Of a stretch of 64,000 nt of DNA, positions 36,101 to 62,478 are shown piece by piece (the first letter of the stretch is position 1; the number at the start of each line of letters is the position of its first letter). The position numbers were made by a program, and so were the translations under genes. Origin of the DNA: Phylloscopus collybita. Taxonomy: Eukaryota; Chordata; Aves; Passeriformes; Phylloscopidae. The DNA lies in the NCBI GenBank assembly GCA_027886175.1, contig JAJNNQ010000126.1, positions 1,054,001 through 1,118,000 of the forward strand, written 5' to 3'. A model generated the notes under the pieces. It saw nothing but the letters and a program-made list of their open reading frames with translations, searched no databases and was not told where the DNA came from.

Positions 36101-39100
36101 CATACTGTGTATACATATCTGTTGGTCAAATTGCTTCCCAGTAGAAGCAATTTGTTTTCTGGTAGAATAAACTGATGCTATACTAGAATAAATCTTTTTA
36201 TATATATACATATTTTAATTTTTATAATAGATTAGTAATTGCTGAAATCACTGTATTTTGAAGACACCTTGGCTGTGTTTTTTTGTGATAAACTTACTGA
36301 GACATTAGGCAGTTCACATACCCTACCTATACACTCACAAAGTTGTGAGTGGATTTTTTGGTTGTGCATGGGGAAAGTATCTACATATCCATGTTTATCC
36401 TGTATATATAACATACATGATGTGAGGAGCTTGTGCATTTTAAAATTTACGTTATCCTGGAGACTTGTTTCTGTCTGCCCCAAAGTTTTTTTTAATGAAA
36501 CTATATGCTTAGCTGAGCATTTTAAGTTATTTTAACATCATTCTTTTCAATTTCTGTTTAATTGCCTGCCAAGAACAGAAAAGCAGAACTTGTCTTAAGT
36601 TCTCAGATGCTTATTGGCTTTGAAGATTCAAGATAGCATTGGAGAGTTGTAAAGGAAGACTTGGGAATAAAATTTTGAGCACCTGTGATGTGGATATTCT
36701 TTTCTGAAGTAACAGTGCAGGCATGCTGCCTGTTCTAGGGGGGCTGGAATTTACAAGCTGGGCTTTGACTTGCATACTTAAATATTGACTAGGGCTTAGG
36801 AAAGGTTTTACCTTTGATCCATCAGAACCTCTTGTTAGCTGAGAGCAGTGAAAATTGGGAAATTCTTCTGGGGCCAAGAAAATGTAGCCTAATTTAACTC
36901 AGTACTAAAGCTGAAATAATGATTTCTGTTCTTTTTCATAGAGTAATTGTTTAGTAATTAATCAATTGGTAATCAATTAGTGATTGATTAGTAAAAGCAG
37001 ATGCATTTCAAACTTACCAGTTTTCACAGGAAATTTAGAGCTTCTTTTGTAATATTTTGTGCTGGGGTATTTTGTCACACAAGTTCTGAATGACAGATCA
37101 TAACTTCAGATAACTGTAATAATATTGAATAAAAATCACTTTCAGGAGTTGTTGTAATTTTAATTTGTCAATGATATAAAATTCAGTCTGATGTAAGAAT
37201 GACATGGTTTTTTAGTTATTTATCAATCGCATAACTTTTGTTGTTGTTTTTAGAACTTTCCTGATGTAGATGATGAAGGATACAGCATTAAACCAGAAGC
37301 AACACAGGATATCCTTTTTACTATTATTGTGCTGAGTTATTTGATGTTATTACAATTCTTTGGAGAGAGGAAGTACTGACTAATGAGTTAAGGAAGATGA
37401 ATGACATTTATGCCTATGTTGCAACCTTGTATTCTTACATTCATAGCTCTTGTAAAATGAACCAATTTTTTTCTTGGATGTGTGTGTGTGTGTGTGTGCA
37501 AATGTTAAAGATTAGATTAGATTAGATTAGATTAGATTAGATTAGATTAGATCTGATCTCTTGGGAACTTTGAAAGGACAGTAAAAATAAAAAGCAAAAA
37601 AAAAGCCAGATCCAATGCAGATACAAAATTCTATGCAAATCTCTCTCCTTGAAAAGCTCTCAGAGAATTTATAAAGTTTGCAAACTTTTTAAAGCATATT
37701 GAATTGTTATCTGTTCTATACCCGCATGCTCCCATTTTTTTCGGTAGCTCTAGAGCAGTGTAGAAATAGAAGTTCTATTACTTAGTGAAGTCATTACACC
37801 ACATACTGTTTCCAATTGGTGCTTTTAGCTTTTACTGTCTTTTTAATAATAGCTTTCATATACAGCATAGATTTTTATTCTGAGTCACGTTTATGGAGGC
37901 TCTCTGCTGTTCTCGTGTTACTTTGGAGGAAAATTCTTGTCCACTTTTTTTGCTACTGCCGCAGAGGAAAGTTCTGCTTAAGAGCTGGGAATGGTTACCA
38001 TAGATCTAAGCAAGCCTAGTATGTTAGCAAGATAGCTAATTTTTGGAAATGTGTTCACTGAATTTTCTGGGTACTGCAGATAAAAGATGAATTTAGCCTG
38101 TACCATTACCTTAAATTGCAAAAACTTTTAGCAGTTAACAACTCAGTGGCCAGTTCATTGTCATAACTTTTTGTTATCAGCTTTGCAGAATATGCCTCTA
38201 ATGCCCACATGGAAGAGTCCTGTAACAACAAAAGCAGTTGGTGTTATCTCCTGTTTACAAAATTGATATAAAAGGGATAGACTTTTATCCAGTTCTAAGA
38301 GGAGTATTATTTCATGCTTTGCATGTATTTTTGAAAGTGAGAGATAAGTGAACAACATTTGTGCTTATGATGAATGATTCATCTGGGCATCCTTTTTTTT
38401 GTCTCTTTTTGTTGTGAAACAAGAGAAAAGACATACATTCAGTGAAAAATATCCATGATTTGCAATCTGTCATGAGATAGTACTTTAGCTTCTGAAAATC
38501 TTGACCAGCTTCAGGGACTTATCAGCTCCCTTTCTCTTTCCTCCCTTAGCCTTTAGAAATCTATTCTGTTTATGGGAACTCATGAGATAATTTGTTGGAG
38601 GACATTGTTTTATTATAATGACATTCAACTTATAAAGACAGTCTGAGTTAGGTCTGTATATTAGCAAAACACTTTACAAAAACTGACTTATTTGTAGGAA
38701 ATCAATCTTGAAGGTCAGTGATAACTTTCAAGACAAGAAATCTTTTGATGAAATTAGAATTACTTCTTTTTGAAACCTTTTCAATAAATGCTTTATTTCA
38801 AAGGAAGAGATAGGCATAAGATTAAGATACTTGGCTTTTTCCTCACCACAACTTTCAGATCCTTTCTGCTGAAAGGGATTTGTAATGTCTTTAGGGTTTG
38901 GGTTTAAAACTTTGTTATGGAGTAGTTTGAAGGAATTTAATGCAAATGTCTGTCATATTTTCAGGTGAAAATAACAGAATTGACTTAGACAATATGTACA
39001 CTTCTTCCAGGTGGTACAAAACATTTGTGTTTCTTTAGAGGGAAATTTTTTCAAATTTTTCTTGCCAAAACAAATGCAATTTTTAAGACTTAGCTTGGGC

Positions 39101-42100
39101 CTTTCAGAGCTTTTCTTCAGTGCAGCTCCTGTGCACATAAAGAGCTGTTTATTTTCCTTATTTTGAGGGCTGAGATATCATGGTGATTCCTTTTTATCCA
39201 AAGATGATCATACTTTAAGCAGCTGATATTGTTCAGTTTACTGTGCAGCCTTCTGTGTAACTGGCATCCTTTCCTGCAAAATTTTCAGTGCTCCTGTAAA
39301 AGGAGCAAGTAATGGTGGCTCCTGCTCTTTCCTTCACTGTTTATGTTAGGTACAGGTACCATGGGCATTTCACTGCTCATTAAAGAACCTAGTCTTTTCT
39401 TCATTTGGTTAAAAGATTTCTACATTTTTCATGTCTGTCAGAATCCCTGTTGGAGTCTTGCAAATTATAATTTTACATGCAGAACTGTTGCTGCTTTAGA
39501 ATCTTAAATTTAACCTCATGTCTTCAAATACGCAGTTGTTCAGTTATCTGACACCATGTGTTTCTGAACAGAATCAGCATTCTGAAGATAAATGGAATAA
39601 ACCCCTAAATTTTAAGTCTTGAGTTGTGAATTTTGGACTGTGGATGTATGTAAGTGCAAAAAGAGGTCACTTAATATGAGCATTTTGTGGAGCAAAATTA
39701 TGAAGTAGATTAAGCAGATGACTTTGAGGTATTTCTACCTTAACTGAGAAAAACATACCAAAGAGAACCATTTCTATTCATCCAGTGATTCTGACTCTGA
39801 AGATGATGAGCCCAGAAGATTCCATGTGGAAATAAAACCTGTTCAGCCAAATAATAGCTCTCAATACACTATGCCTTCTTTGGATGAATTAAAAGTATCC
39901 ATAGGGAACATCACTCTTTCTCCAGCAATATCTGTAAGTTTTTTTTTTCCTTGTATTTTTAATGTGTTGAAAAGTAGTAAAGAAACTGTAGTGTAAATAT
40001 ATATGATAGTGTTCAGAATTTATTCTAGTTTCAATAACCTTTTTTCTTGTGCACTAGATAATTTTTAGTACACGTTATATTCCAATATATTTGAATTGCA
40101 CTTTTATATTGCAATATAACATTAAGTACTTTTCTCATATTTAAACTTTCCCGTGAGTCTTTTGAGTGCTCTGTTCTTGTCTTTGTGCTCTTGTCACCAC
40201 AAGACATTCAATTACATGTTAGAGTTAGCCAAGCATGGCTTTTAATGTAATTTGCTGATTAGTTTTCAATAACATACAAGTCTTTCAAAACAGGTAATAT
40301 AATGTACAATGATACGTGTAACATTTGCAATGCAGCTTTATTGATGTATCCTGCCAATTCATGGAATAATCCTTTATACCACAGACAATAAATAATATTA
40401 GGGTATGCCAGTAGAGTACTCAGAACAAGACTGATTCTGATTTTAAGAAAAATAGTGCACATAACATATTAAAATAATAATTTTTCTCTTTTTTCCCCTC
40501 ACTACATTTTGAAAGCAGAGGCACAGTCCTGTAAGTAGAGAATGGCTTTTTATTTGCATTTGTAGTTAAAACTAAGTAAGTGTAGTATGTGAGAGGACTT
40601 GTTGGGAAAACATGAAGATTATTTCGTTTCATCTGTACCATGTGATAGAATCACAGGCTATTTAATTTTCTGTCCCAGACAGTAAAGAGATCTAAAAATG
40701 CTGCTCCCTTTCTCAGCTCTATAGTATTTATTCCTGCATTTTCATACTGGTATGGAAGATGTGCACTGATTCCTCTGTCCAGGCTCATGTTCCATGGTCT
40801 TCCACAAACTCACTATGTTTTTGCCCGCCACTGAAAAAAAAAAATCTCATAGAAATTTGAGTGGAAATAAGAATTCTGGGACTATTAAGTGGTTTATTTC
40901 ACAGTAGAAGAACTTACTCCTATTTTCTTTTTTCCTGTTTCAGGCACAAATGAATCAAAATTCATCCAGTAAGTGTGAATCCTTTAGTTAGTTTTTTAAC
41001 ATAGAATGAAAACAAATCTCTTTTTAATTGTTGGAGACATAAACTTCTTAAATATCTGTATTTTAAATTGAATAAAATGTTTCTCTTGTTAGTTTTATAT
41101 AACTCTTCCTTGTCTATGTACTTGGCTGTTCCCTGTTATGGGGACCAGATGAGCCTATATCTGACAGTAATGAGGAGCACATCCTGATGCCAAAGGATGT
41201 TACCCCATGGAAAAAAAACTCCTGTGCAAGGTCGTAAAACCCTTCCACCTACTCAAGTTTAATATGATCCCCAAACCAGCAAAGCACACCGTATGTGTGT
41301 ATGATGTAAAATACCTACATAGAGGATAGAGCATTAGCTTCTGTTTTTCAGGGTTTGTTAGGGGTTTTTTTGGTCAGTGAGAAACCAGGCCAGATTTGCC
41401 AAAGAACAGTATTGATGTAAACTGTATAATTCAAGGAGGAAGTTTCAAGTAAACAAAATTCCTTATAAAATGCATTGGTGATGTAGTCTTCTCATATTTC
41501 AGGAATATCTAAACTTAAGTTATCAGAAATAACTTTTTCTGATAAATTAAATTCAGAAATACATTTTCTTTTTCCATTTCAATAGTAATTTGTTTTGAAC
41601 TGCCAACATTAGTATTAACAATCTTTTTATAATGAAAATGAAATTTTTATTTTATATTTCACACTTCTAGTGATAACACTGTATCTTTTCCTTAGGTGAA
41701 GAGTTAACAAAATCAAAACTTTCTGCTCCAACTACTGAGTAAGTTCGAATTTAAAATTCTATCAAATGCTGTTTTGCAGAAATTTGTTCTTAATTTTCTA
41801 ACACTCTGAAACTCACTGGAAGTGACAGCTGAGTCCTATTTTAAGTTGCACCTCTATTGCATTATAAGACTAAGTGTATCAATGGATATTTCCATTCATC
41901 GACCCCTTCTAATATATTTGATTTATTGTGATCAATCTCAGTTGATATTTTTAATTACATGGCTACACAATGTTTTAAAATAACATAGATTTTGTTTCTA
42001 TCCAAGAGTGTTCCATGGTAAAGTATTTAGGATTGAAAACCCCAAATTTACACTGATCTGCATAGATTGCTTACATGTTTATAGGCTGAAATAAATGAAT

Positions 42101-45100
42101 TTGAGGAAGTAGATCTCAAAAATTACAGTTATTTAAATGACGTTATGGAGTATGTCCACAAATTTTCACCAAGGTGTTGGCTAAGATAGTCTCCTTATCT
42201 CTAAATCAGTTCTTTGACCTGCAACTTTTGACTAATTCTTTTCTTTTTAGCTGCAATGACTAATATAGACTAATTTGTCAAATGTTTTTATCATATTATT
42301 GAGGGACTTCTTACAAGGGTTATGTAGTGATAGGACTCAGAGGAGTGGCTTTAACTGAGAGTAATTTTAGATTAAATATATGGAAAAAATTCTTTACTGT
42401 GAGGTCTGGTGAGATTGGAAACAGGTTGCCCGTAGAAGTTCTCTATGTGCTGTCTCTGGAGGTGTTCAAGTGTTCGGTCTGGAAGGGGCTTTGAACCTGG
42501 TCTAGTGGATGCCAATGTAGTTGGAACAGAATTTTTAAAGATCCCTTCAAAGCCAAACTATACTGTGTTTATTATAATTATTAGGTTATCAAACTGCTAC
42601 TGAAGTTTATGATTTTTATGAATGCATAAATCTTTCATTTCTATTCCAATTTTAACTCTTAATATAGAAAGGGGAACAGTGATTTCCTGGCATGGGATCC
42701 ACTCTTCAGCACTTCTCTTGAATCTTCCTCTTCAGCTTCTTTGGCATCCTCATCCTCCTCAGGTAAAATATTTGATGGTAGAGATTTTTCGTATTTCTGG
42801 ATGTTCTGGTGTTGTTTTTCAGTTATTGCAAGGGGATGTGCTTTGATGTGTAAATGATAGAATTTTATAAACAGTACATTGTCTTGGAAGTGTTACATGA
42901 CTGAGAAGGCAGTATATAAGTCTTTCAAGCTGTAGAGCAAGAGGGAAGAGGGAGTGCAAGACAATTTAGGAAAATTCTATCTTGCTCCTGCCTTTTTTTT
43001 ATTGCTTTCTCATAGTTACTGAATAATTGCTTACCATCTAGAATGTAATCATTTTTTTTTCAGCTGGTAAAGATGGGAGATTAAATCGAGGTTGTTTGCA
43101 GCAACTGTGAGACATGTTGAGCTTGCACAACGAATAGGGATGGATTTCTTCTTTCCAGGAAAGTTGATTGGGCTATGTAGTACAAAGGCATTGCAGAGCT
43201 TTGCTGTGAGGAACTTGTTTCCTGTAGGAAGGCATGATTCTGGTAGGAGATGTGAAGGCATAATCCAAGGGGCAATGGATAAAAATGACAGGAGTGAGAA
43301 TGAATTAAGCTGAGATCCTGAAAGCAGGGGTATTGCAAGGAAAAGGATGGTGTATGGCAAGTGGGAGGTGGAGAACACATGGTGCCTGGGAATTTTGGGT
43401 TGCAGGATATTAGTGTTGGTAGGACACTGGCAGGTCTTCCTGAAACCTGGTATTTTCAAAGTACAGTTTCATAGTTCTGTTTAGTCTACCTACTGTGTAT
43501 CTTTATTCCAACATCTTAATTTTCTTTTAATTTAGACACTTCTCTCCTCCCACTCACCTGAGAAAGGAAGTGTGTGCACTTGTGTTTTTCACTTACTTCA
43601 CAAGTATTTACTTGTATTCCAAAAATAGTCCTCACTTCTTTGTTCATGATTATGGCTTTCTAGTGATTTTCTCCTCTACTTGATCCTGCAGATTGAAGAA
43701 CAATAAGGAAGATTACATGTATCAATAGGAGAATTCTGAAAAACTGGTGTTATTTCTTGGCTTAAGTAATGTTGTTTTAGCAACAATAAACATTGCCTTG
43801 TAACACTTCAGATTTTAGGTAGAACTTCATCTTTCACTACAAATCCATGTTTCTTAAAGGTTAAGATTTTAACTAATCTGGAATCTGGTTTACAGAATTT
43901 ATCATAATTTTCTCATCTTGACTTAAATAATCAGTAGTGTTGGCAAGTGAAACCACCATGTGTGGTAACACATTTAAGAATAAATTCTAGAGAGAGAGAT
44001 ATTACTGGAATATTCTGGAAAAAAATGGTGCTTTCTTAAAATATTCTGTTTTGATAGCTTTGGTCTTGTGTTGGAGTCTGCAGAGAAAGGCAGAGGATAC
44101 TTAACTTGTTGTGCTGGTGGTTGTAGCTGTATTCTGGTGTTCATTCTGCTGTGCCTGGATGGGAAGTGAAAGCAGGTTAGGAAATCTTCATACAGTTACT
44201 CCTGGCAGCAGAACTGTGGAGAAAATAGTCTCTGGCTAATGAGTAATGACAGACATCCATAACATCCTCTGTGGCTGTATCTGGCAGGGAATCATCTACC
44301 CTAGCCCTCATACCCTTGAGGATTTTCCACACAGCTCTGCAGTTCATTGAAATTGGTGCAATAGAGGGGCTTGTGGGCTTAAATCAAGTTTAGATACATC
44401 TGTGCCTTGGCAAACTTTATCTGATAAATAGTTATTTCAAGGATTGTTGTTCTAGGGGTTAACTAAGATTTACATTTGTGAAATAATATGTAGAATTAAA
44501 TAGAAAATAAGTGTTCCAAAGTATAAAAAATTTCCAATACATGTGGGGCAAAAAAAATGGGTTAATGTAGGCCATGTTGTTTAAATTGTGTTCTAATGCT
44601 TGTTAACTTGCAAGTTAGTTCTAGAACTTTTTTTAAAAAATACTTAACTTATCTGATTGTAATTTCCTTGAAATCAATTTTTTTTTCTTCAGCTTGAAGG
44701 TCAGTTGTAAGCTGGTACTTAAAGTTTTTGAAAATCTCAGTCCAAAACTTAAATTACATACATTAGTTATGTGAAATACAGTATATGTCCCCTACAGTTT
44801 AAACATTTGTTTAACTATTGTTTTATAACTGTGTTAATCATTGAACACTTAAACTCCCTTGGTATTTGATCAGACAGTGGTTTATGCAGCACAGAAGTAA
44901 TCTTTGGTCATCCATGAATAATCCCACTTTATTAGAAGCTTAAGATAACTCTGTTATCTTGAACAAACACAACAGACATTTTTAAGCTAGCTCTTGATAT
45001 TTTAAAAATGTTTCTTTTAGTTATCTTCCTTATTTTCATCCATATGTACATCTCCACATTGTTTTTAAATAGGATTTATAGTAGTATTTTTAAAGCCTTT

Positions 45101-47250
45101 GAATGATAGTTAAAATATCTGCTAGAAAGGGAAAGCTATGTTAAAATTCTTAATGTTTAGGTAGACTTAGAGAATGTGTTTGTTTATGGGAAAAAGACCA
45201 CTGTAGAGAGGACAACCATACTTTTAAGTATGTTTCTCTCTCTTTTTGATTTTGGTTGTCACTGCTGTTGCTCCTAGCTCTGCCAATCTGCTAGTTGTTG
45301 AGAATTGACTAACCCCTGCATTTTCTGCTTCTATTGTCATCTAGAACAGCAGGCAACAGCAAGTGCAGGAAAACTCCTTTTTTCAGCAGTCAGAAGACCA
45401 TAAGATGAGAGAGGAAAAAAAACTGAGGTGGAGGATGCCTCATCCATATTGTTACTCACTAGACACAAATTGATACAGACAGAATAACTATCAGACCAAA
45501 TCCTGTGACTCCATTGTCTTCATTCATTCACCTGAAAACCAAATCTGTTGGACCTTCCTATTACAAATTTTAGGGCTAAGAGGATCAAAGTCTTTGGAAG
45601 GAACAGGTTAGGTCTGATTAAATAACTTTGAAGGAAATTAAAAGCAGAATGCTGTGGAGAGGAGCCAAAAATGGAGTAGAATGCAAGAAGGGAAAGACAA
45701 AGACGAGAAAAAATTAAATCACAACAGGTAGGAAGTCAGAGGAATAAGGACAACTGTGAGAAATAGAGCCTTAAGTGGAGAGATAAACAATTTTTTTTAT
45801 GTACTAAAAAACGGAAAGTGATATGATTGGCAGTGTGAATGCAGTACATATGTGACTGGCTTTTTTCTTTCTTCTGTTTGTGAATTGGGGGGCTTATCTT
45901 AGTAGAGCAGTTATTTTTCATGCTGGCTAGTAATCCTTATTCAGTGGGTATTGAATACTTTTTTGAATATTGAAATTTTTATCTTTTCATTGTCGGTCCT
46001 AGTTTCAATTCTTCCCTTTTCCTTCAGCTACCCTAACAGAGCACAATAGGAGCTCCTCCTCATCCACCACTGATTTGCCTAGAATATCTCAGTCTTTGCT
46101 TGGACACCAGACAGATTCTGGGTCTACAAGCCCATCCTCACCAGGCTTTACCATTAGCACTTTGTGCAAATCTGGTGTTACAGCAGCGCCATCAGGGAGT
46201 ACCAGTACTTTATCCTGTTTTTCACGGTCTCAAAGTCAGTGGATTTCCTTTGCTGATGAACTTCTTACAATTAGACACACAAGCACAGACAAGAAGGAGC
46301 CCCAAAGATTGCATTTTAAAACTGAAAATGCCTGCCTTGCCTCTTCTGCTTTGCTTGGGAATTCTTCCAACAGCTGTGCTTCTGAGGATCAAAGTGACCT
46401 TTTCAATAACTCTATATGCCATGAACAATTATTCATTGAAGAAACTGGCACTGCTGCTGAAATATCTTCTGCATCATCTTCAGCACTACTGGACTATAGT
46501 TTAGTGTCTTCTTGTGCTCATACAAATAAGGGTATGCCAAGCATGCATTCTGTACTGCTCTTTTGCTAATAACTGACTCCAAAAAGCAAGCTTTGGATTC
46601 ATTTTTCTTTTTATTATTATTGCTCATCTGATGTTAAAATTAACTCATCTTCTTACTTAGAATGTACTAAACTGCCTGTTAATACCAGTTGGGACAGTGA
46701 AGTAAATATTCACCTTGAAATAAGAAGAAAATTCAAATTATTTATTTAAAGGCATTGCTTGCTTTTAACTATGCAGTGTTGCTTTTCTAGAAATGGGAAT
46801 GTATTTTTGTGGCATGTCAGACAGCAATGAGATCTCAAAGATTAAGTAATTTCATTTGCAAAACCAATTCGTTTTACATACAAGTTTCCAAGAGTGGTTG
46901 GTATAACGTCACTTGAGAGCAATGAGAAAGCCCCTGATGTTACTTTTAGATGCACTTTTCAGGGTGTCACATGACACTATTTTAAAGGCACTTATGATTT
47001 GTGGTAACTCTTAATGGCACTTGTACAATAGGAACCTCTAGTAGAAACATCACTTCCAGACATTCTACTCAAGTAAAGAACTATTTATCTTCAGTGTGAT
47101 CTTTCTAATATTTTCTTAACTTCTCTTTCTTTCAGCAAGGCCCACCACTCCTCTTTCTGTGGGCACCATTGTACCCCCTCCAAGGCCTGCTTCAAGACCA
47201 AAGCTGTCTGCTGGGAAACTTAGTGGGATTAATGAAATAGTATGTATTGA

Positions 47251-50200: not shown

Positions 50201-53200
50201 AAACACACCTACAGTGGGTAAGTGCAATTAACTATTTTATCTTACTTGAGAAATAGGACAATTCAGCCACCAGGTTGCATCTGTTTGTGAGAATCACTTT
50301 TTGGTGAGAGAAACTTTGCAATGTCTGCTTCTAAATGACACTGAGACACAGGAAAGTAGACTAAATTAGAGTAGACCATAGATCCATGTTCTTTAGGGAA
50401 ATAATATTCACAATTAACATTCCATGAATTCTCATTTGGTATGCTTGTATATCCATCAAGTGCAACATGTTATAATATATTCGTTCAGAAGATGTTATTG
50501 TGTAAGTGCAGAAATACTTAGGGATACTGAAAAATTTGAATGAGTACAAATGTTCACAAAACTGAGTTCTTTTATGTTCTTTTAATTTTGTTTGTTGTTC
50601 CATAATTGCAGTTTCCAAAACATAAATCTAATGCATCTTTTTCTTCAAGTTAGTTAAGAGCATAAGCTAAGCAGTAAAAGCAAAACAAACAATTAAACAA
50701 GAAAGATCAAGATGAAAAGGAATGTGTTGCCACTAATTTCAGAAGGTTTTCTCTTGTTTTTTAGAAGGCCCTTCAGTTTTGATATTTGATTATCATAAAT
50801 CAAAAGGAGGTATTGGGGTTTTTTTAGTTAGTTGGGGTGGGTTTTTTTGTTTGGGGTTGGCAGGGCTTAAGACATTTAAACTTGTTTATTTAGCAGTACT
50901 GAACTGTTTAATTCCTGAACACCATTACACCTTTAGTCACAAGTTAAACTAAATTGTCAAGTTATCATTTCATTATCTGAAAATTTTATTGATGCCAAGG
51001 ATTCCTCAGACAGACTCACCAGCTCAGAAGAGCATCCATGCAGCACCTAGTGGGAGATCTGCAGTGGGCATGTTTCCACTCTATGCTGAAGCAAAGCTAC
51101 TAAATTCTGCCCAGCCTTAGCTCTTACAGTTCAGTGTCCATCAGTTCCACAAATGCTGAGAAGCATCACAGAAATACAGTTGATATTTGGTTGCCAGAGT
51201 CTATCCAGGCTCACATCCTCACATCTCAGCTCTGGTGTCAAGGAGACAAAAATTGGTGGCAAAAGCATCAACATCCCCAGCTCTGGGGAAATATGTGTGT
51301 GTGTTGTTGGAAACAGTGACAGAGTGAAATCATGAGGTGAGGCAGGAGGTAACGAGGTGTGTGCTGACACTGAAGTTTGATGTGGTTATTATTCTGGCCT
51401 AGGAAAAATAAATAAGGCCAGTTCCATCTGCACTGACTGTATGAATCAAATAGTCCTGGGAAAATGGGAAGGGCAGTGCAAAAATCTGAAATACTCTGGG
51501 GCATGAGGATATAGTTTGCAATACATCCTGTACTGTTTTGACTTTTGCACAATCCACTGTTCCCCTTATGCCATTTGTTCTGAATAATGGAGAATTGATT
51601 CTGATTATCTTTTTCCAAGTGAACTTCAAGGCATGCCTAATTGAGTGCTTCTTTTATGCTTTAGCCTTAATTTAATTTGCAAAATATTTTTGAATAATTA
51701 TTTTTAACATCTATATTTGCTTGAAATATTTTGTTTTCTTGCAATGTTTTGTTTCATTTAAATGTAATAGATGATGATCTTTTGATTCGAAATCTTCCTA
51801 CAATTGAAAAGCTTTGTGAGACACCACCAGGTATTGTACTCAAAGCACATTTATGTCTTAACTAATCATTCTAATATACTACATCTAATAAAATTGTATT
51901 TCTTTTGAAACAAGTTTCTCCAGATATTTCTGGTATCAGGCACATACAAGTTGCTTAACATCTCTACTACATAACAAGTTGTATGTTGCTGAAATCACCA
52001 AAACTTGATGTAAACACTTTTATATGATGTTATCTTCTGTCTATCCACTTCCCTGCTCCATAAATAAGCTGAAACTTGGCCTTGCCTCTTCAGTTTGTCA
52101 TTACTACTTTCCTTCAAGTAAAGTGAATATATTTTTACTTTGACAATCCTTTTCCTCCCAAAACAAGTAGGTAATAATGTTTCTATATTTACATATAATA
52201 CAACTCGTAGAATACAGACATAATAAAGATAGTACTTTCTTTAATAAATTTTATTTTCATGACAGCTGTTTAGCCAGTATTAAAACTCTCTGGATCTTTG
52301 TTCCTAAACTGAACTAAAACCATTTGATCAGCTTTATTCATCTGCCCTTTTTATGACCAATGATGCAGTCTTTTGTTCTGCAGTTTTGGTCTGCACCTTG
52401 AAGGTGTCAGTGCAACCATTTGCATGGTTATGTCACTAGCTCTTGTGTCAGCACAGCTCAGGGACTGGCAGTAGTGATCAGGCTGAGGCTGGTGACAGGG
52501 CATTTAAGCCAGGTTTGCCACCACCACTGCCGAAGGTGATAGAGCTGGAGCCTTGATCTGGGCTGCAGCCTGAGATGAAGTGAGGGTACCTTCATGCAGC
52601 TGTCACTTTCCATCTGAGACCTCACAGCAGATATAGAAAACCCTGAAGCTGAACATTGCTGCATTGAATTGTACTCTCAGCAGCAAGGCAACAAAACTAT
52701 GGCTTTCAATGTCAGGACAATGTTTGTTTCATATGACAGAATGACAGAATCATGAAGGTTGGGAAAAGACTTCCAAGAGCAAGTCCAGGCATTGAACAGT
52801 CACCACCTTGTCAACTAAACCATAGCTCTAAGCACTCCAGTCATTTCTTGAACACTTCCAGGGGTGGCCACTCGCCCACCTCCCTGGGCAGCCCATTCTA
52901 AGTGAAGAAATCCTTGCTGTAGTCCAGCCTGGATCTCCCCTGGCACAGCTTGAGGCCATTTCTTCATTTCCTGTTGCTGACTGCCTGGGAGAAGAGACTG
53001 CCCCTTACCTTGCTACACTCTTCCTTCAGGCACTTGTAGAGAGTGATAAGGCCCCCCTTATCACTACTTTTCTCCAGGCAAAATATCCTGAGCTCCTTCA
53101 GCTGTTTCTCATATGACTTAACTCTCCAGACCCTTCCCTTGCTCCATTGCACTTCTCTGGATGTATTCCTTGAATTGAGGGGCCCAGAACTGAACACAGC

Positions 53201-62200: not shown

Positions 62201-62478
62201 AAGGAAGTGTGTTCTTCTGAGCTCCCTGCTCTGGAGTGATGCAGACACACCCTTCTCTTTTTCTCTTTTCCTCCTGTAGTTTTCCACAGACTTACCTTAA
62301 AATGTGCAAATATTTTTATATTTCCATTTAGGGATGTTTGTAATATACCAGTGTAAATCAAGGGAAATCAAATTCTAAACAGTGCTTGTAACTAACCTAC
62401 CATTCTCCTACAGGAATGCAGACCAGATGAAAGCATGTTGGAAAATATCTAGCATTTCAGAGAAGTCTGAGAATGGAG
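82..62478 (+). CDS. FCHO2: FCHO2, internal part of the gene (24 exons, both ends missing)
   Basis: FCHO2 is a muniscin. It dimerises through an N-terminal F-BAR domain that binds PI(4,5)P2-rich curved plasma membrane. Its linker activates AP-2, and its C-terminal MHD recruits EPS15, intersectin and cargo adaptors such as DAB2, so the protein acts at the start of clathrin-mediated endocytosis. The exons listed separately here translate to a near-collinear match with human FCHO2 (810 aa) from about residue 42 to about residue 750. Without the two cassette exons they total 2123 nt; with them 2687 nt. Every exon junction keeps phase and no frameshift or stop was found, so the gene looks functional. 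Exons for about the first 41 residues lie before the window. Those for the last 60 or so residues lie after it. FCHO1 is less likely, because the linker and MHD wording match FCHO2. Confidence 0.97.
157..1493 (+). other. FCHO2 intron, no recognisable element
   Basis: AT-rich intron with donor GTAAGT and acceptor CAG. Short minus-strand open frames at 162-368 and 743-946 show no recognisable domain. I see no repeat family here. Confidence 0.7.
1494..1635 (+). CDS. FCHO2: FCHO2 exon: F-BAR core, human residues about 67-114
   Basis: This 142-nt exon completes the split Gly codon and encodes [20 protein letters not shown], followed by a Lys-rich helix that ends in AYKK. It ends in phase 0. The acceptor is CAG at 1491-1493. 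The donor is GTTATT, which is weak at positions +3 to +5, and the intron behind it is only 91 nt. Basic residues here fall in the membrane-facing helix region of the F-BAR family. Confidence 0.96.
1636..1726 (+). other. Very short FCHO2 intron (91 nt) with a weak donor
   Basis: The intron runs from GTTATT to GGCAG. If it were retained, translation would stop at a TAA about 14 codons in, so correct removal is needed for function. Confidence 0.9.
1727..1879 (+). CDS. FCHO2: FCHO2 exon: F-BAR coiled-coil helix, human residues about 115-165
   Basis: This 153-nt phase 0-0 exon of 51 codons begins [20 protein letters not shown]. Its second half, including [17 protein letters not shown], is the same as in human. 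The donor is GTAGCT. Exon length is a multiple of three, so skipping would remove a helix segment without a frameshift. Confidence 0.97.
2290..2352. repeat. 21-bp tandem repeat, three copies
   Basis: The units at 2290-2310, 2311-2331 and 2332-2352 share CATGAGTATTTGAAGTCTG. The first two differ only in the last base. The third is more diverged (GTTCA in place of GAGTA). Confidence 0.9.
2480..3070 (-). mobile_element. CR1 LINE fragment (3' end, antisense to FCHO2)
   Basis: The left end reads as the reverse complement of a CR1 3' tail (CACAGAATCACCCAATGCC, then GACAGGGACCTCTG). It continues with typical antisense CR1 wording such as AGGTGTTTCCTGATGTTCAG and CCAGGCTGAACAGTTCCAGC. Boundaries are approximate. 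It carries no intact ORF. Confidence 0.85.
5141..5245 (+). CDS. FCHO2: FCHO2 exon: F-BAR helix, human residues about 166-200
   Basis: This 105-nt phase 0-0 exon of 35 codons begins [20 protein letters not shown] and ends in KMTETAQ. It matches human except near AFKSDFEL, where human has LAKADFEQ. The acceptor is TATAG and the donor is GTAAGT. Confidence 0.97.
5246..7162 (+). other. FCHO2 intron, no recognisable element
   Basis: AT-rich intron of 1.9 kb. The stretch 6300-6480 is slightly more GC-rich and has a few CpGs, but I could not assign it to a repeat family. Confidence 0.65.
7163..7261 (+). CDS. FCHO2: FCHO2 exon: F-BAR helix, human residues about 201-233
   Basis: This 99-nt phase 0-0 exon of 33 codons begins [20 protein letters not shown] and ends IHLQIGE. 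The human equivalent begins [20 protein letters not shown]. The acceptor is TTTGCAG and the donor is GTATTT. Confidence 0.96.
7262..8250 (+). other. FCHO2 intron, no recognisable element
   Basis: AT-rich intron of about 1 kb ending in a T9 tract and TTGTTTGAAG. No repeat family or RNA gene was seen. Confidence 0.7.
8251..8347 (+). CDS. FCHO2: FCHO2 exon: end of the F-BAR domain, human residues about 234-266
   Basis: This 97-nt exon begins [20 protein letters not shown] and ends in GKERP plus the first base of a Gly codon (phase 1). It differs from human at a single position (A to T in NNMxNTT). This is the last F-BAR exon. The donor is GTAAGA, and the following intron is the largest in the window. 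Confidence 0.97.
10727..10745 (-). promoter_or_regulatory. Candidate CTCF binding site
   Basis: The minus strand reads TAGCCACCAGAGGGAGCCC, which contains the CCACCAGAGGG core typical of vertebrate CTCF sites. It sits in an otherwise AT-rich intron. This is a motif match only, with no occupancy evidence. Confidence 0.45.
11040..11085. repeat. A-rich simple repeat (CAAAA-type)
   Basis: A run of A tracts interrupted by single C bases (AAAACAAAACAAAAC and similar), about 45 bp long. It lies about 150 bp upstream of a CR1 copy. Confidence 0.8.
11225..12696 (+). mobile_element. CR1 LINE 3' portion, split by an LTR insertion
   Basis: The sense-strand CR1 shows landmarks such as AAGGACCTGGGGGTGCTGCA near 11358, ATCCAGAGCAGGGTGGGCAG near 11449, and AACAGGTTGCCCAAAGTGAT near 11841. 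It is interrupted at about 11922-12592 and resumes with GATGTCTCTGCTCATTG and GTTGGACTAGATGAAC. It ends in the diagnostic CR1 tail of ATTCTATG repeats at about 12679-12696. No intact reading frame remains. Confidence 0.93.
11922..12592 (-). mobile_element. Solo LTR of an endogenous retrovirus inside the CR1
   Basis: This 670-bp block is foreign to the CR1 on both sides. A 7-bp direct repeat ACCTGAT lies at each edge (11915-11921 and 12592-12598), consistent with a 6-7 bp target-site duplication; the exact edge is ambiguous by a base. On the minus strand it has a TATA-like TATATAAG (complement at 12145-12156) and AATAAA (complement at 12048-12053) about 100 nt downstream, as in an LTR. Three CCTGTACAGGGGGGT-like repeats lie near its right end. 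There is no gag, pol or env. The family was not identified. Confidence 0.75.
13255..14345 (-). mobile_element. CR1 LINE fragment (antisense), longer copy
   Basis: The antisense CR1 begins at the left with wording such as TTGAACACTTTCAGAGATAG and GGGCAACCCATTCCAGAACC. It runs through the 3' UTR region into the end of ORF2, whose reverse-transcriptase remnant is listed separately. It is 5'-truncated and diverged. Confidence 0.92.
13991..14332 (-). pseudogene. CR1 ORF2 reverse-transcriptase remnant
   Basis: A 113-codon open piece on the minus strand contains [16 protein letters not shown] and [16 protein letters not shown]. These correspond to the F-x-KAFDTV and SG-V-PQG-VLGP-LF-I motifs of CR1 reverse transcriptase. 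The catalytic YADD or FADD box is not intact: the frame reads into VCQGYHAVW where the FADDTKL-like stretch belongs. It is a dead fragment, not a host gene. Confidence 0.85.
14966..15330 (-). mobile_element. LTR-like element (endogenous retrovirus), minus orientation
   Basis: Read on the minus strand, the block has a CCAAT box (GACCAATGTGATC, then CACCAATCAAATTGG), a TATA box TATAAAAAGGGAG (complement at about 15074-15086) and an AATAAG signal about 20 nt further on (complement near 15057-15063). This is the promoter and polyadenylation layout of an LTR. Its ends are estimated and no duplication was found. No coding remnant is attached. Confidence 0.6.
22395..22529 (-). mobile_element. tRNA-Ile-derived SINE with CR1-type tail (TguSINE1-like)
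   Basis: On the minus strand the element starts GGCTGTCTCCAGCTCACTTGG and continues GGTTAGGGCATGGTGTTAGTAA. This closely follows tRNA-Ile, whose A-box region reads TAGCTCAGTTGG and whose anticodon arm reads GGTGCTAATAA. A degraded B box (GGATTCAAGC) follows. The remaining part, GAGTTGGACTTGATGATCC to ATTCTGTG, is a CR1 3' tail, so CR1 machinery would have mobilised it. TguSINE1 of passerines has this architecture. Confidence 0.82.
23806..23823. repeat. Poly-A tract
   Basis: AAAAGAAAAG followed by an uninterrupted A run inside the large intron. No transposon body is attached that I can see. Confidence 0.8.
24871..24915 (+). CDS. FCHO2: FCHO2 exon: start of the linker, human residues about 266-281
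   Basis: This 45-nt phase 1-1 exon encodes [14 protein letters not shown] between split Gly codons. Human reads LIEFEECDTASAVE. The acceptor is TTTCTTTAAG and the donor is GTGAGT. Length and phase make it skippable without a frameshift. Confidence 0.95.
24916..26611 (+). other. FCHO2 intron, no recognisable element
   Basis: AT-rich intron of 1.7 kb. Open frames at 25926-26159 and 26222-26437 show no recognisable domain. The acceptor is TTCCGTAG. Confidence 0.7.
26612..26684 (+). CDS. FCHO2: FCHO2 exon: basic linker segment, human residues about 281-305
   Basis: This 73-nt exon encodes [20 protein letters not shown] and TES plus two bases of a Val codon. Human reads [20 protein letters not shown]. 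The cluster of Arg and Lys just after the F-BAR domain probably helps membrane contact (inference). The donor is GTAAGT. Confidence 0.96.
27676..27769. repeat. 94-bp direct duplication, copy 1
   Basis: It matches 30023-30116 without gaps over 94 bases, with four differences, all transitions. It starts AAATAACAGAGGATTCATTA and ends GTCTGTATTTTGT. The two copies lie in consecutive introns on either side of the 25-nt exon at 29764-29788. Confidence 0.93.
29716..29757. repeat. (CTT)n and poly-T microsatellite forming a polypyrimidine tract
   Basis: About six CTT units run into a T tract of more than 20 bases, followed by AAATAG, the acceptor of the next exon. It doubles as a splice signal and a length-variable microsatellite. 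Confidence 0.93.
29764..29788 (+). CDS. FCHO2: FCHO2 microexon (25 nt): ECPDADS segment
   Basis: The 25-nt exon completes a Val codon and encodes ECPDADSV; human has ECPDADSL. The acceptor is AAATAG behind the T-rich tract and the donor is GTAAGT. Length is not a multiple of three. Skipping would join GT to AAC and give a TAG five codons later, so a skipped transcript should be a decay target. Confidence 0.94.
30023..30116. repeat. 94-bp direct duplication, copy 2
   Basis: Ungapped near-copy of 27676-27769 (90 of 94 identical), same orientation, about 2.35 kb downstream. It begins 235 bp after the donor of the 25-nt exon. Confidence 0.93.
31170..31199. repeat. T-rich simple tract
   Basis: About 30 bases, almost all T with two C interruptions. 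It is not next to an exon. Confidence 0.85.
37254..37308 (+). CDS. FCHO2: FCHO2 exon before the AT-AC intron
   Basis: This 55-nt exon encodes [18 protein letters not shown] and the first base of an Asp codon. Human reads [19 protein letters not shown] before the same Asp. No GT lies at the expected end. Instead the exon is followed by ATATCCTT, the U12-type donor. The bird sequence is one residue shorter than human here. Confidence 0.93.
37479..37499. repeat. (TG)n microsatellite
   Basis: About ten TG units, 12 bp before an ATTAG array in the same intron. Confidence 0.93.
37511..37551. repeat. (ATTAG)8 pentanucleotide repeat
   Basis: Eight perfect ATTAG units followed by ATCTGATC. The units are perfect, which suggests recent expansion and likely length polymorphism. 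Confidence 0.96.
39755..39933 (+). CDS. FCHO2: FCHO2 exon: acidic Ser linker and conserved [10 protein letters not shown] motif
   Basis: This 179-nt exon begins with the last two bases of Asp and encodes [20 protein letters not shown], then a segment containing [19 protein letters not shown]. Human has [20 protein letters not shown] and the same second motif. The SDSDSEDDE run suits casein kinase 2 (inference). The conserved part lies in the AP-2-activating portion of the muniscin linker. The donor is GTAAGT. Confidence 0.96.
39934..40518 (+). other. FCHO2 intron before the 12-nt microexon
   Basis: AT-rich intron ending in GAAAGCAG at 40511-40518. The region before the acceptor is T-rich (TTTTTCTCTTTTTTCCCCTC). 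No repeat was seen. Confidence 0.85.
40519..40530 (+). CDS. FCHO2: FCHO2 microexon of 12 nt encoding RHSP
   Basis: AGG CAC AGT CCT is bounded by CAG before and GTAAGT after. Human FCHO2 carries RHSP at this place, between SPAIS and the VQMN segment, which supports the exon. It is phase 0-0, so it can be skipped without frameshift and would remove a Ser-Pro site. Confidence 0.92.
40531..40943 (+). other. FCHO2 intron between two microexons
   Basis: A 413-nt AT-rich intron. Acceptor TTTCCTGTTTCAG. No mobile element was recognised with confidence. Confidence 0.85.
40944..40968 (+). CDS. FCHO2: FCHO2 microexon of 25 nt: AQMNQNSS
   Basis: It encodes AQMNQNSS plus the first base of a Ser codon; human has VQMNRNLS. 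The acceptor is TTTCAG and the donor is GTAAGT. Removing it alone would shift the frame. Confidence 0.93.
40969..41695 (+). other. FCHO2 intron, no recognisable element
   Basis: AT-rich 0.7-kb intron. Region 41110-41300 is slightly more GC-rich but was not assigned to any family. Confidence 0.7.
41696..41738 (+). CDS. FCHO2: FCHO2 exon: [13 protein letters not shown] linker segment
   Basis: This 43-nt exon completes a Ser codon, encodes [13 protein letters not shown] and ends with GA of a Glu codon. Human has EELTKSKPSAPPN. The acceptor is TTCCTTAG and the donor is GTAAGT. Confidence 0.94.
41739..42667 (+). other. FCHO2 intron with a short CR1 piece
   Basis: AT-rich intron. The CR1 fragment at about 42297-42570 is listed separately; no other element was seen. 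Confidence 0.75.
42297..42570 (+). mobile_element. CR1 LINE 3' fragment (sense)
   Basis: Diverged sense CR1 with typical order: GAGGGACTTCTTACAAGGG, TAGATTAAATATATGGAAAA, AACAGGTTGCCCGTAGAAGT, then AACCTGGTCTAGTGGATGCC. The tail after AAGATCCCTTCAAAGCC is worn. Confidence 0.87.
42668..42762 (+). CDS. FCHO2: FCHO2 exon: LAWDPLF and Ser-rich linker
   Basis: This 95-nt exon completes Glu and encodes [20 protein letters not shown], then a run of Ser and Ala. Human has KGTSDLLAWDPLFGPSLDSS. WDPLF is the conserved hydrophobic patch of this linker. The exon ends in phase 1 (donor GTAAAA), compatible with both the 46028 exon and the 47136 exon. Confidence 0.95.
42763..46027 (+). other. FCHO2 intron before the cassette exon
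   Basis: A 3.3-kb AT-rich intron. A 136-codon minus-strand open frame at 43049-43459 has no recognisable domain and probably results from purine bias of the + strand. No known repeat was assigned. Confidence 0.65.
46028..46531 (+). CDS. FCHO2: Probable 504-nt FCHO2 cassette exon adding 168 linker residues
   Basis: The region is open for 168 codons in exactly the frame required by its neighbours. It is phase 1-1, with acceptor TTCCCTTTTCCTTCAG and donor GTATGC. Skipping restores the human-like join from the Ser-rich run to ARPTTPLSV. The encoded segment is disordered and rich in Ser and Thr. It contains [11 protein letters not shown] (residues 70-80), which fits the WxxF-acidic motif for the AP-2 alpha appendage. 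There is also SEDQSDLF (119-126) and EQLFIEE (133-139). I do not recall this segment in human FCHO2 (810 aa), so I read it as an alternative exon. It could also be constitutive in some tissues. Codon use looks coding, with no stop and no repeat similarity. Confidence 0.8.
46532..47135 (+). other. FCHO2 intron, no recognisable element
   Basis: A 604-nt AT-rich intron ending in TTCTCTTTCTTTCAG. Confidence 0.85.
47136..47239 (+). CDS. FCHO2: FCHO2 exon: Pro/Arg-rich linker, [20 protein letters not shown]
   Basis: This 104-nt exon completes an Ala codon and encodes [20 protein letters not shown], then [14 protein letters not shown], ending in phase 0. It is almost identical to human. [10 protein letters not shown] resembles an SH3-binding proline motif (inference). 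The donor is GTATGT. Confidence 0.97.
47252..47282. repeat. (ATT)n microsatellite 12 nt after a splice donor
   Basis: About ten ATT units start within 15 nt of the GTATGT donor at 47240. Confidence 0.93.
48280..49260 (-). mobile_element. LTR-like element with internal tandem repeats, minus orientation
   Basis: On the minus strand there is a TATA box TATAAAAAGG (complement at 48617-48627) and AATAAA downstream (complement at 48379-48384). Upstream, in the U3 position, lies a 63-bp higher-order tandem array at 48921-49109. Purine-rich GAGAGAGAGA sequence lies at 48511-48540. I could not define the ends or a target duplication, and no coding remnant was found. An unknown repeat of another class remains possible. 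Confidence 0.5.
48921..49109. repeat. Higher-order tandem repeat: three 63-bp blocks of 20+23+20 bp units
   Basis: Nine related units resembling GTTATTACCAACAATCCTTG follow one another. Lengths run 20, 23, 20 / 20, 23, 20 / 20, 23, 20, the 23-bp ones having an extra three bases (GCT or TCT) at the end. Units start at 48921, 48941, 48964, 48984, 49004, 49027, 49047, 49067 and 49090. Confidence 0.9.
49270..49700 (-). mobile_element. CR1 LINE fragment (antisense)
   Basis: Diverged antisense CR1 with GGCAGCCTGTCCCAGGATTT, AGGACTTTTTCCCAAAGTCC and CCCTGGGCTGAAAAAACCCTG in the expected order. Boundaries are approximate. Confidence 0.75.
50088..50217 (+). CDS. FCHO2: FCHO2 exon: Pro/Ser-rich linker ending NTPTVG
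   Basis: This 130-nt exon encodes [20 protein letters not shown], then [20 protein letters not shown] and PTV plus one base of Gly. It is nearly identical to human. It ends in phase 1, so it can join either the 60-nt exon at 51771 or the MHD exon at 55472. The donor is GTAAGT. Confidence 0.97.
50218..51770 (+). other. FCHO2 intron, no recognisable element
   Basis: AT-rich 1.6-kb intron. Overlapping short open frames on both strands near 51131-51629 show no recognisable domain. Confidence 0.65.
51771..51830 (+). CDS. FCHO2: Probable 60-nt FCHO2 cassette exon (20 residues)
   Basis: A phase 1-1 exon of 60 nt encodes [20 protein letters not shown] when joined to the previous exon. The acceptor is AAATGTAATAG behind a T-rich region and the donor is CAG-GTATTG. 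It is open in the required frame and can be left out without a frameshift; human FCHO2 as I recall it goes directly from TVG to VSRG. DDDLLI fits the acidic dileucine pattern [DE]xxxL[LI], although this is a short motif. It is less certain than the 504-nt exon because it is short. Confidence 0.65.
51831..55471 (+). other. FCHO2 intron with a GC-rich CR1
   Basis: A 3.6-kb intron with antisense CR1 at about 52735-53466. The rest is AT-rich. About 55190-55330 has a TAACGTCATG sequence with an ATF/CREB-like half site and several CpGs, close to the next exon. No other element was seen. Confidence 0.7.
52735..53466 (-). mobile_element. CR1 LINE fragment (antisense), GC-rich
   Basis: It begins with the reverse complement of the CR1 tail (GACAGAATCATGAAGGTTGG), followed by CTCCCTGGGCAGCCCATTC, GGCCCAGAACTGAACACAGC and CTCACCAGTGCCCAGCACAG. 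The long open frames on both strands at 53043-53559 come from this element's GC-rich body and are not host genes. Confidence 0.92.
55472..55583 (+). CDS. FCHO2: FCHO2 exon: start of the mu-homology domain
   Basis: This 112-nt exon encodes [20 protein letters not shown], then [16 protein letters not shown] and the first two bases of Lys. It matches human from about residue 520 onward with no difference in the recognised part. [17 protein letters not shown] opens the MHD, the beta-sandwich that binds EPS15 and intersectin. The donor is GTTAGT. Confidence 0.98.
55584..56182 (+). other. FCHO2 intron, no recognisable element
   Basis: A 599-nt AT-rich intron ending in TTCTCTTCTAG. Confidence 0.85.
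56183..56338 (+). CDS. FCHO2: FCHO2 exon: MHD strands, [20 protein letters not shown]
   Basis: This 156-nt exon completes Lys and encodes [20 protein letters not shown], then [20 protein letters not shown] and [11 protein letters not shown], ending two bases into a Ser codon. Differences from human are conservative (M to I, T to S, I-S-R to T-T-K). The donor is GTTTTG. Confidence 0.97.
56339..57267 (+). other. FCHO2 intron, no recognisable element
   Basis: A 0.9-kb AT-rich intron with a short TTTA repeat just after the donor. The acceptor is TCTTTGTAG. Confidence 0.8.
57268..57400 (+). CDS. FCHO2: FCHO2 exon: [23 protein letters not shown]
   Basis: This 133-nt exon completes Ser and encodes [10 protein letters not shown], then [20 protein letters not shown] and [14 protein letters not shown], ending in phase 0. 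The first part differs most from human (DPSQCDSNTK). The rest is nearly identical. The donor is GTAAAC. Confidence 0.97.
57825..58075 (+). mobile_element. CR1 LINE 3' end (sense)
   Basis: Typical CR1 3' order: TAGATTAGATATTAAGAAAA, GGTGGTGAGTCACTGGCAC, AGCAACCTGGTCTAGTTGTC and GGTCTTTAAGGTCCGTCCCA, then a worn tail. Confidence 0.9.
58095..59235 (+). mobile_element. CR1 LINE fragment (sense), longer copy
   Basis: A second, longer sense CR1 directly after the first. It runs from the end of ORF2 (worn GACAAACTCCTATGGTGACAT and CTTGGCAAGTTTGCTGATGG, the latter matching the ADDT region at DNA level) to AGACAGCCTCCAGGAGGTCTC near the 3' end. The coding part is full of stops. Confidence 0.9.
60143..60342 (+). 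CDS. FCHO2: FCHO2 exon: [23 protein letters not shown]
   Basis: This 200-nt exon encodes [10 protein letters not shown], then [40 protein letters not shown] and [16 protein letters not shown], ending in TG of a Trp codon. It matches the human MHD core with scattered changes (for example EAMVAPSVLSNI in human). The donor is GTAATA. Confidence 0.97.
60343..62413 (+). other. FCHO2 intron, no recognisable element
   Basis: A 2.1-kb intron. Region 60780-61060 and 61380-61900 are a little more GC-rich, but I could not assign them to a repeat family. Confidence 0.65.
62414..62478 (+). CDS. FCHO2: FCHO2 exon: [23 protein letters not shown], followed by a GC donor
   Basis: This 65-nt exon completes Trp and encodes [20 protein letters not shown] and G plus one base of the next Gly. 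Human reads NAEQMKAFWKLSGISEKSEN. The expected boundary is GGAG followed by GCAAGT, a textbook GC-AG donor. No GT lies at this point, and the next GT (62483) would not give the human-like join. This is the last FCHO2 exon I can find in the window. Confidence 0.94.

What the first reader, a model, noticed from the sequence alone, without database searches (positions are those of the whole stretch)
46028..46531. 504-nt in-frame cassette exon adds a 168-residue segment to the FCHO2 linker
Seen: the stretch is open for 168 codons in the single frame allowed by both flanking exons, has phase 1 on both sides, a strong pyrimidine tract with CAG, and a GTATGC donor. Skipping it gives exactly the human-like protein. 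Known: the muniscin linker controls AP-2 activation. Inference: inclusion would make a long FCHO2 isoform of roughly 970-980 residues with different endocytic activity, possibly tissue-specific.
Basis: partly seen in the sequence, partly recalled or inferred. Interest (0 to 1): 0.8.

Follow-up and report, generated by a model that had tools for sequence, protein, structure and literature searches.

The report
Reptile-bird extra exon in FCHO2
A bird gene for an early clathrin-endocytosis protein carries a large optional exon that is also annotated in other birds, a crocodilian and a turtle but was not found in the mammalian protein, and that probably adds a flexible segment with one extra docking motif for the AP-2 adaptor.

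Summary
Databases already hold it: predicted FCHO2 isoforms of many birds (zebra finch X1, 980 aa), a turtle (Chrysemys, 64% identity) and a gharial (68%) carry it. No mammal, squamate, amphibian or fish row appeared in those two hit lists, so it is at least as old as Archelosauria. Skipping is annotated in Chrysemys; skipping in birds was not tested. No title or abstract start listed by our paper searches describes it.

The segment is predicted disordered. Most likely role (inferred): a splice-controlled linear-motif module just after the AP-2-binding part of the linker. It carries a WxxF-acidic motif (75 of 77 annotated proteins), the kind that binds the AP-2 alpha-appendage sandwich subdomain, while the neighbouring LFGPxL alpha-appendage motif of human FCHO2 is degraded in 84 of 84 readable proteins: a possible trade-off.

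Unexpected: the ~42 nt after the donor, judged by their read-through peptide, are more conserved between birds and gharial than the exon, and one gharial isoform is annotated as ending there, without the mu-homology domain.

The parts
46028..46531 (+). 504-nt alternative coding exon of FCHO2, 168 residues, phase 1-1, inserted at the equivalent of human residue 448/449 (recalled human sequence)
46005..46027 (+). polypyrimidine tract and CAG acceptor of the exon
46532..46537 (+). GTATGC donor of the exon
46532..46573 (+). first ~42 nt of the downstream intron; read through, its relatives spell a tail (GMASMHCVLLFANN in 4 of 9 ORFs, 1-3 changes in the rest; GMASMHCVLLFPNN in gharial) more conserved than the exon; holds a GCATG at 46541
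46541..46545 (+). GCATG, a possible RBFOX site 9 nt into the downstream intron (motif role recalled; lead only)
46240..46260 (+). codons of W-I-S-F-A-D-E: candidate WxxF-acidic AP-2 alpha-appendage motif
   Evidence: motif class from PMC3794858 (passages)
46429..46446 (+). codons of LFIEET, in one of the best conserved stretches of the exon (SEDQSDL.NN...HE.LFIEET)
42668..42762 (+). upstream FCHO2 exon holding the linker 'C block' ([14 protein letters not shown])
42693..42719 (+). C block core WDPLFSTSL: WxxL kept, LFGPxL alpha-appendage motif degraded
   Evidence: PMC9054013 (section 14)
47136..47239 (+). downstream FCHO2 exon ([23 protein letters not shown]...)

Best explanation
The stretch is a genuine, selectively maintained, alternatively used exon of FCHO2, present since at least the common ancestor of turtles, crocodilians and birds. 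When included it inserts 168 (most often 170) disordered, serine-rich residues between the AP-2-binding part of the linker and the proline-rich part before the mu-homology domain. Most likely it acts as a splice-controlled linear-motif module: its W-I-x-F-acidic motif docks on the sandwich side of the AP-2 alpha-appendage, adding to or replacing the weak alpha-appendage contact that the C block makes through LFGPxL in mammals and that archelosaur FCHO2 has lost. Shown here: exon structure, frame, protein-level conservation, predicted disorder, presence of the motif, degraded LFGPxL. Annotated, not measured by us: inclusion in birds, inclusion and skipping in a turtle. Inferred: alpha-appendage binding, the compensation, and tissue regulation. 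The confidence given is for the whole statement; the exon itself is near certain, the mechanism well under one half.
For: Exon structure and frame. Homologues: 9 of 318 candidates, 76 of 7988 scored candidates and 66 of 4506; the rows are all named FCHO2 of birds, turtles or a gharial; of the hits only P0004 has a name (uncharacterized protein of an eagle). Identity to the window: turtle 107 of 168, gharial 114 of 167. In a simulation, neutral drift to about 67% aa identity left the frame stop-free in 8.5% of 400 runs, and stop-free without frameshift in 0 of 400, with an assumed indel rate. Disorder: mean pLDDT 36.4, 0 of 167 residues at or above 50; serine 23%; no Pfam match. W-I-x-F plus acid in 75 of 77 annotated proteins (misses: P0081, low-quality 'FCHO2-like'; P0085, partial) and in 8 of the 9 ORFs (P0004 has C for W). 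WxxF motifs bind the alpha-ear sandwich subdomain (PMC3794858, passages). The human FCHO2 C block binds the alpha-appendage at 100-200 uM, and changes at FG or PP take the FCHO1 block below detection (PMC9054013, section 14); LFGP is in 0 of 84 readable C blocks here. The insertion falls just beyond the AP-2-binding linker 314-444.
Against: No RNA or binding measurement was available. WxxF occurs by chance in 3.8% of shuffles of this peptide, 1.5% with the acid, and the 20-residue windows starting just after the W are among the least conserved of the exon. The best conserved stretch ([19 protein letters not shown] to LFIEET) has no assigned motif, so another partner may matter more. One eagle ORF has C for W. 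In mammals the alpha-appendage contact may be minor: excess alpha appendage did not change AP-2 binding to the FCHO1 linker in pull-downs (PMC4215538, passages). The WxxF protein we read about is NECAP; tolerance for isoleucine after W was not checked. Whether LFGPxL is degraded also in lineages without the exon was not examined, so the trade-off is a correlation within one clade, compared with a recalled human sequence and the paper's quoted motif.
Confidence: 0.5

Rival explanations
1. The exon is real but its sequence is mostly a spacer: it lengthens the disordered linker and adds phosphorylation sites, without a dedicated AP-2 motif.
For: Fast evolution: 64% identity to turtle, the lowest of 23 exons (others 67-100%), though only 4th lowest against chicken. 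Serine 23%, threonine 11%. Disordered prediction. FCHO linkers work by weak, avid contacts with a variable-length spacer (PMC9054013, passages).
Against: Distinct blocks are kept: LFIEET in 73 of 77 proteins, WIxF-acid in 75 of 77; 37 of 170 columns are invariant across 38 distinct sequences including turtle and gharial.
Confidence: 0.3
2. The exon is also, or mainly, an alternative last exon: reading through its donor gives a truncated FCHO2 (F-BAR plus linker plus a short tail) without the mu-homology domain.
For: Gharial isoform X3 (P0086, 632 aa) is annotated as ending ...YKGMASMHCVLLFPNN, past the donor, with F-BAR but no muHD match. The tail agrees with gharial at 11-13 of 14 positions in 9 of 9 ORFs, against 67-71% exon identity for the three birds compared.
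Against: The stop is not kept: 3 of the 9 ORFs run on past it (P0002, P0003, P0006). The window has a shifted, earlier stop in the tail. In 75 of 77 proteins the exon is followed by the next exon's ARPTTPL; exceptions P0085 (partial) and P0086. Predicted models can arise from unspliced RNA (general knowledge).
Confidence: 0.12
3. In birds the exon is constitutive or nearly so, not a cassette.
For: The bird isoforms we retrieved contain it (P0085, a partial model, only in part); strong pyrimidine tract.
Against: Our searches scored the exon itself, so skipping isoforms of birds could not appear. The donor is weakish, the exon is symmetric, and a turtle has both forms annotated.
Confidence: 0.25
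4. The open frame is a chance ORF in an intron.
For: Two other introns in the window have open runs of 176 and 179 codons.
Against: Frame and sequence are conserved across birds, turtle and gharial.
Confidence: 0.01

Closest known systems
FCHO2 long isoforms in RefSeq/UniProt predictions (e.g. zebra finch X1, 980 aa; chicken XP_025000609.1)
   Same: Same gene, same exon, same position
   Different: Predicted entries; no title or abstract start listed by searches (some listings capped) is about the exon
SGIP1 / SGIP1-alpha, the brain muniscin with splice variants that differ in function (PMC8740024, outline with abstract seen)
   Same: A muniscin whose alternative segments change endocytic function
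   Different: The SGIP1-alpha segments lie in the membrane-binding domain and C-terminal region; no sequence link to this exon was tested
NECAP 1 C-terminal WxxF motif (PMC3794858, passages read)
   Same: Short W-x-x-F motif in an endocytic accessory protein
   Different: NECAP's motif is C-terminal and shown to bind the alpha-ear; here it is internal, followed by ADE, and untested
FCHO linker C block LFGPxL (PMC9054013, passages and section 14 read)
   Same: Muniscin linker contact for the AP-2 alpha-appendage, about 14 residues upstream of the insertion
   Different: Binds the platform subdomain; degraded in the archelosaur FCHO2 proteins read

Membership tests
FCHO2 (muniscin) | F-BAR/FCH domain and C-terminal muHD in one protein | tested here: met
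   Zebra finch P0011, 93-100% identical per exon to the window's spliced protein: FCH 2.2e-19, muHD 1.2e-70; window exons align to FCHO2 from residue 42 to 749 (recalled human sequence). First and last exons lie outside the window.
Protein-coding cassette exon | Splice sites, multiple of 3, same phase at both ends, open frame | tested here: met
Protein-coding cassette exon | Both inclusion and skipping transcripts exist | tested here: inconclusive
   Annotated in Chrysemys (X3 with, X6 without). No bird skipping isoform was sought; no RNA data.
Protein-coding cassette exon | Frame conserved in relatives | tested here: met
WxxF AP-2 alpha-appendage ligand | W-x-x-F core with acidic neighbours in a disordered region | tested here: met
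WxxF AP-2 alpha-appendage ligand | Measured binding to the alpha-appendage sandwich subdomain | not testable with these tools
   Needs ITC, pull-down or a complex structure
LFGPxL alpha-appendage ligand (C block) | Intact LFGPxL | tested here: not met
   Window LFSTSL; LFGP in 0 of 84 proteins with a readable C block, of 85 (P0085 has none)
RBFOX-regulated exon | (U)GCAUG just downstream of the exon and RBFOX-dependent inclusion | tested here: inconclusive
   One GCATG 9 nt into the intron; chance about 2.6% in 30 nt; no binding or knock-down data

The most novel reading that the evidence does not exclude
In turtles, crocodilians and birds FCHO2 swapped its way of holding the AP-2 alpha-appendage: the constitutive LFGPxL contact decayed and a WxxF contact on the other face of the appendage was placed in an optional exon, so that cells can turn this step of clathrin-coat initiation up or down by splicing.
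Probability: 0.2. Interest if true: 0.65.

Novelty: new member of a known kind. Interest (0 to 1): 0.4.

Why it matters
FCHO proteins mark where clathrin pits start, and their linker sets AP-2 activation (PMC9054013). A clade-wide optional exon at the end of that linker would be a natural experiment on how muniscin-AP-2 contacts can be rewired, and a caution that results from mammalian FCHO2 may not carry over to birds and reptiles. The binding claim can be tested with a short peptide.

Tried and rejected
Rfam and tRNA scans of the window: nothing. PDB sequence search with the exon peptide: two hits at E 0.27-0.28, both uncharacterized proteins, ignored. Pfam: no match for the exon; a weak FAM209 match (E 0.016, under the cut-off) in the intronic extension of P0003, ignored. 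Repeats around the exon: nothing that explains its origin. Scans of genome contigs and viral contigs for DNA of relatives: none confirmed, so no nucleotide comparison (dN/dS, direct intron alignment) was made; intron conservation is inferred from read-through protein only. Turtle 29-residue segment sought in the bird intron: no convincing match (best E 0.26, with a stop). The structure model was too poor for a fold search, so none was run. Clathrin box, DPF/W, FxDxF, NPF and dileucine patterns: none in the window's exon peptide; one YxxPhi (YSLV), not kept in turtle.

Literature: searches paired FCHO2 with splicing, isoform, chicken, microexon, RBFOX, bird, Z chromosome or splice variant. Some listings are capped (20 of 4,339; 15 of 1,209; 10 of 13; complete in 14, 36, 48). 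No listed title or abstract start is about this exon; most listed papers were not opened. Searches were for AP-2 motifs and linkers. Opened: PMC4215538, PMC3794858 and PMC4468903 (passages), PMC9054013 (passages and section 14), PMC8740024 (outline and abstract).

Rows dropped before counts: 15 proteins whose exon start did not fit the search pattern and P0085 were left out (62 of 78 sequences kept, window included; 39 distinct). One search also left out P0081 (38 of 39). One search recounted the motifs on all 77 proteins P0010-P0086 and the C block on all 85 (P0010-P0094).

Full report
What is there. The window holds most of FCHO2 on the + strand. Guided by a recalled human sequence, 23 exons were placed with splice sites; the first exons and the last lie outside. 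The finding's exon, 46028-46531, is flanked by 42668-42762 and 47136-47239, with phase 1 on both sides. Inclusion gives an 875-residue partial protein, skipping a 707-residue one, neither with a stop. Only the frame allowed by the neighbours is free of stops. Its acceptor has the joint best pyrimidine content of 23; its donor scores 6 of 9, with 2 lower and 7 equal. Open runs of this length are rare in simulated introns (1 of 300), but two other real introns here have slightly longer ones, so length alone would not prove it.

Conservation proves it. A search with the exon peptide returned 9 ORFs among 318 candidates, 82-96% identical. Four span the whole exon; five cover 62-90% of it, four of them starting at an internal methionine. 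None shows a stop or frameshift within what it covers. A search with the joined protein, scored on the exon alone, returned 76 of 7988 scored candidates (only those sharing most words were scored): FCHO2 from songbirds, raptors, owls, doves, cranes, cuckoos, parrots, penguins, duck, chicken, emu and kiwi, and the turtle Chrysemys; several rows are isoforms of one species. A search with the turtle exon returned 66 of 4506, adding a gharial and further turtles. No mammal, squamate, amphibian or fish name appears in the rows of either table. These are absences from predicted proteins at E 1, not from genomes. Identity to the window is 107 of 168 for turtle and 114 of 167 for gharial. A neutral simulation reaching similar identity kept the frame intact in 0 of 400 runs, with an assumed indel rate; without indels 8.5% stayed stop-free. 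NCBI taxonomy places the turtle and the gharial in Archelosauria, as it does birds by general knowledge, so the exon is at least that old.

Inclusion and skipping. The evidence is annotation. Chrysemys isoform X3 (P0084) has the exon; X6 (P0087) lacks it but keeps a separate 29-residue segment at the same junction. Proteins of six other turtle species (P0088-P0094) also show that segment without the 168-residue exon; whether those species have other isoforms with it was not seen. For birds the searches scored the exon, so skipping isoforms could not appear; skipping in birds remains to be shown.

The peptide. It is 23% serine with a net charge of -6, has no Pfam match, and AlphaFold2 with 10 sequences gives mean pLDDT 36.4 with no residue at 50 or more: disordered. 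Against turtle it is the least conserved of the 23 exons (64%; others 67-100%), against chicken the fourth lowest (84%). Blocks stand out: [19 protein letters not shown]...HE.LFIEET, and W-I-x-F followed within four residues by D or E. The latter is in 75 of 77 annotated proteins and 8 of 9 ORFs. [quoted passage not shown]

The neighbourhood. In human FCHO2 the AP-2-binding linker used in published work is residues 314-444 (PMC4215538, passages; PMC9054013, passages). Its last block, C (423-438), holds WDPLFGPSL: LFGPxL binds the alpha-appendage platform weakly and WxxL binds mu2 (PMC9054013 section 14). The insertion lies at the equivalent of 448/449. LFGP is in 0 of the 84 proteins with a readable C block, of 85; instead they read LFSSSL, LFSTSL, PFATSL, VFGSSL and the like, while WDPL is kept in 71. 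FG and PP changes take the FCHO1 block below detection. Hence the proposal that the exon supplies another alpha-appendage contact. This is inference. No binding was measured; a WxxF occurs in 3.8% of shuffles of such a peptide; the residues just after it are among the least conserved; excess alpha appendage did not change AP-2 binding to the mammalian FCHO1 linker; and the clade comparison has no outgroup beyond human.

An unexpected feature. The frame stays open past the donor, and the tail spelled there, GMASMHCVLLFANN in 4 of 9 ORFs with 1-3 changes in the others, is GMASMHCVLLFPNN in gharial: 11-13 of 14 identical, against 67-71% for the exon in the three birds compared. The gharial protein is annotated as ending there, 632 residues, without muHD. 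Either this is a truncated isoform, or the first ~42 intron bases are kept for splicing control; in the window they include a GCATG, about 2.6% likely by chance in 30 nt. Against a protein role: three ORFs run past the stop and the window itself has a shifted end. I favour splicing control; nucleotide data from relatives would be needed to decide.

Verdict. The exon is already present in automated annotation; no listed title or abstract start in our searches describes it. What is added here is its age, its motif content and the link with the degraded C block.

Noticed in passing
window 37309-39754: FCHO2 intron with AT-AC ends (ATATCCTT ... AAAAAC) and a CCTTAAC branch-like site: looks like a U12-type minor intron (class recalled).
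   Followed up: partly
window 51771-51830: A second optional FCHO2 exon, 60 nt, phase 1-1 ([20 protein letters not shown]); a pattern for it matches 22 of 77 annotated proteins.
   Followed up: partly
window 40519-40530: A 12-nt microexon (RHSP) in the linker; RHSP is in 43 of 77 annotated proteins, with an extra Q before it in zebra finch and duck.
   Followed up: partly
P0087-P0094 (turtles): Turtles have an extra 29-residue segment at the same junction, seen with (Chrysemys) or without the 168-residue exon; no convincing match in the bird intron.
   Followed up: partly
P0081 (Aegotheles albertisi, contig of 25 Mb): Low-quality 'FCHO2-like' second copy keeps a degraded exon with the WxxF region disrupted; possibly a W-chromosome copy, since PMC4468903 lists a W-linked FCHO2 as a likely pseudogene in flycatcher.
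   Followed up: partly
window 13994-14350 (- strand): Reverse-transcriptase fragment (RVT_1, E 8e-7, just under the Pfam cut-off), probably a LINE remnant in an FCHO2 intron.
   Followed up: no
window 62479: Apparent GC donor (GAG|GCAAGT) after exon 62414-62478, placed by eye.
   Followed up: no
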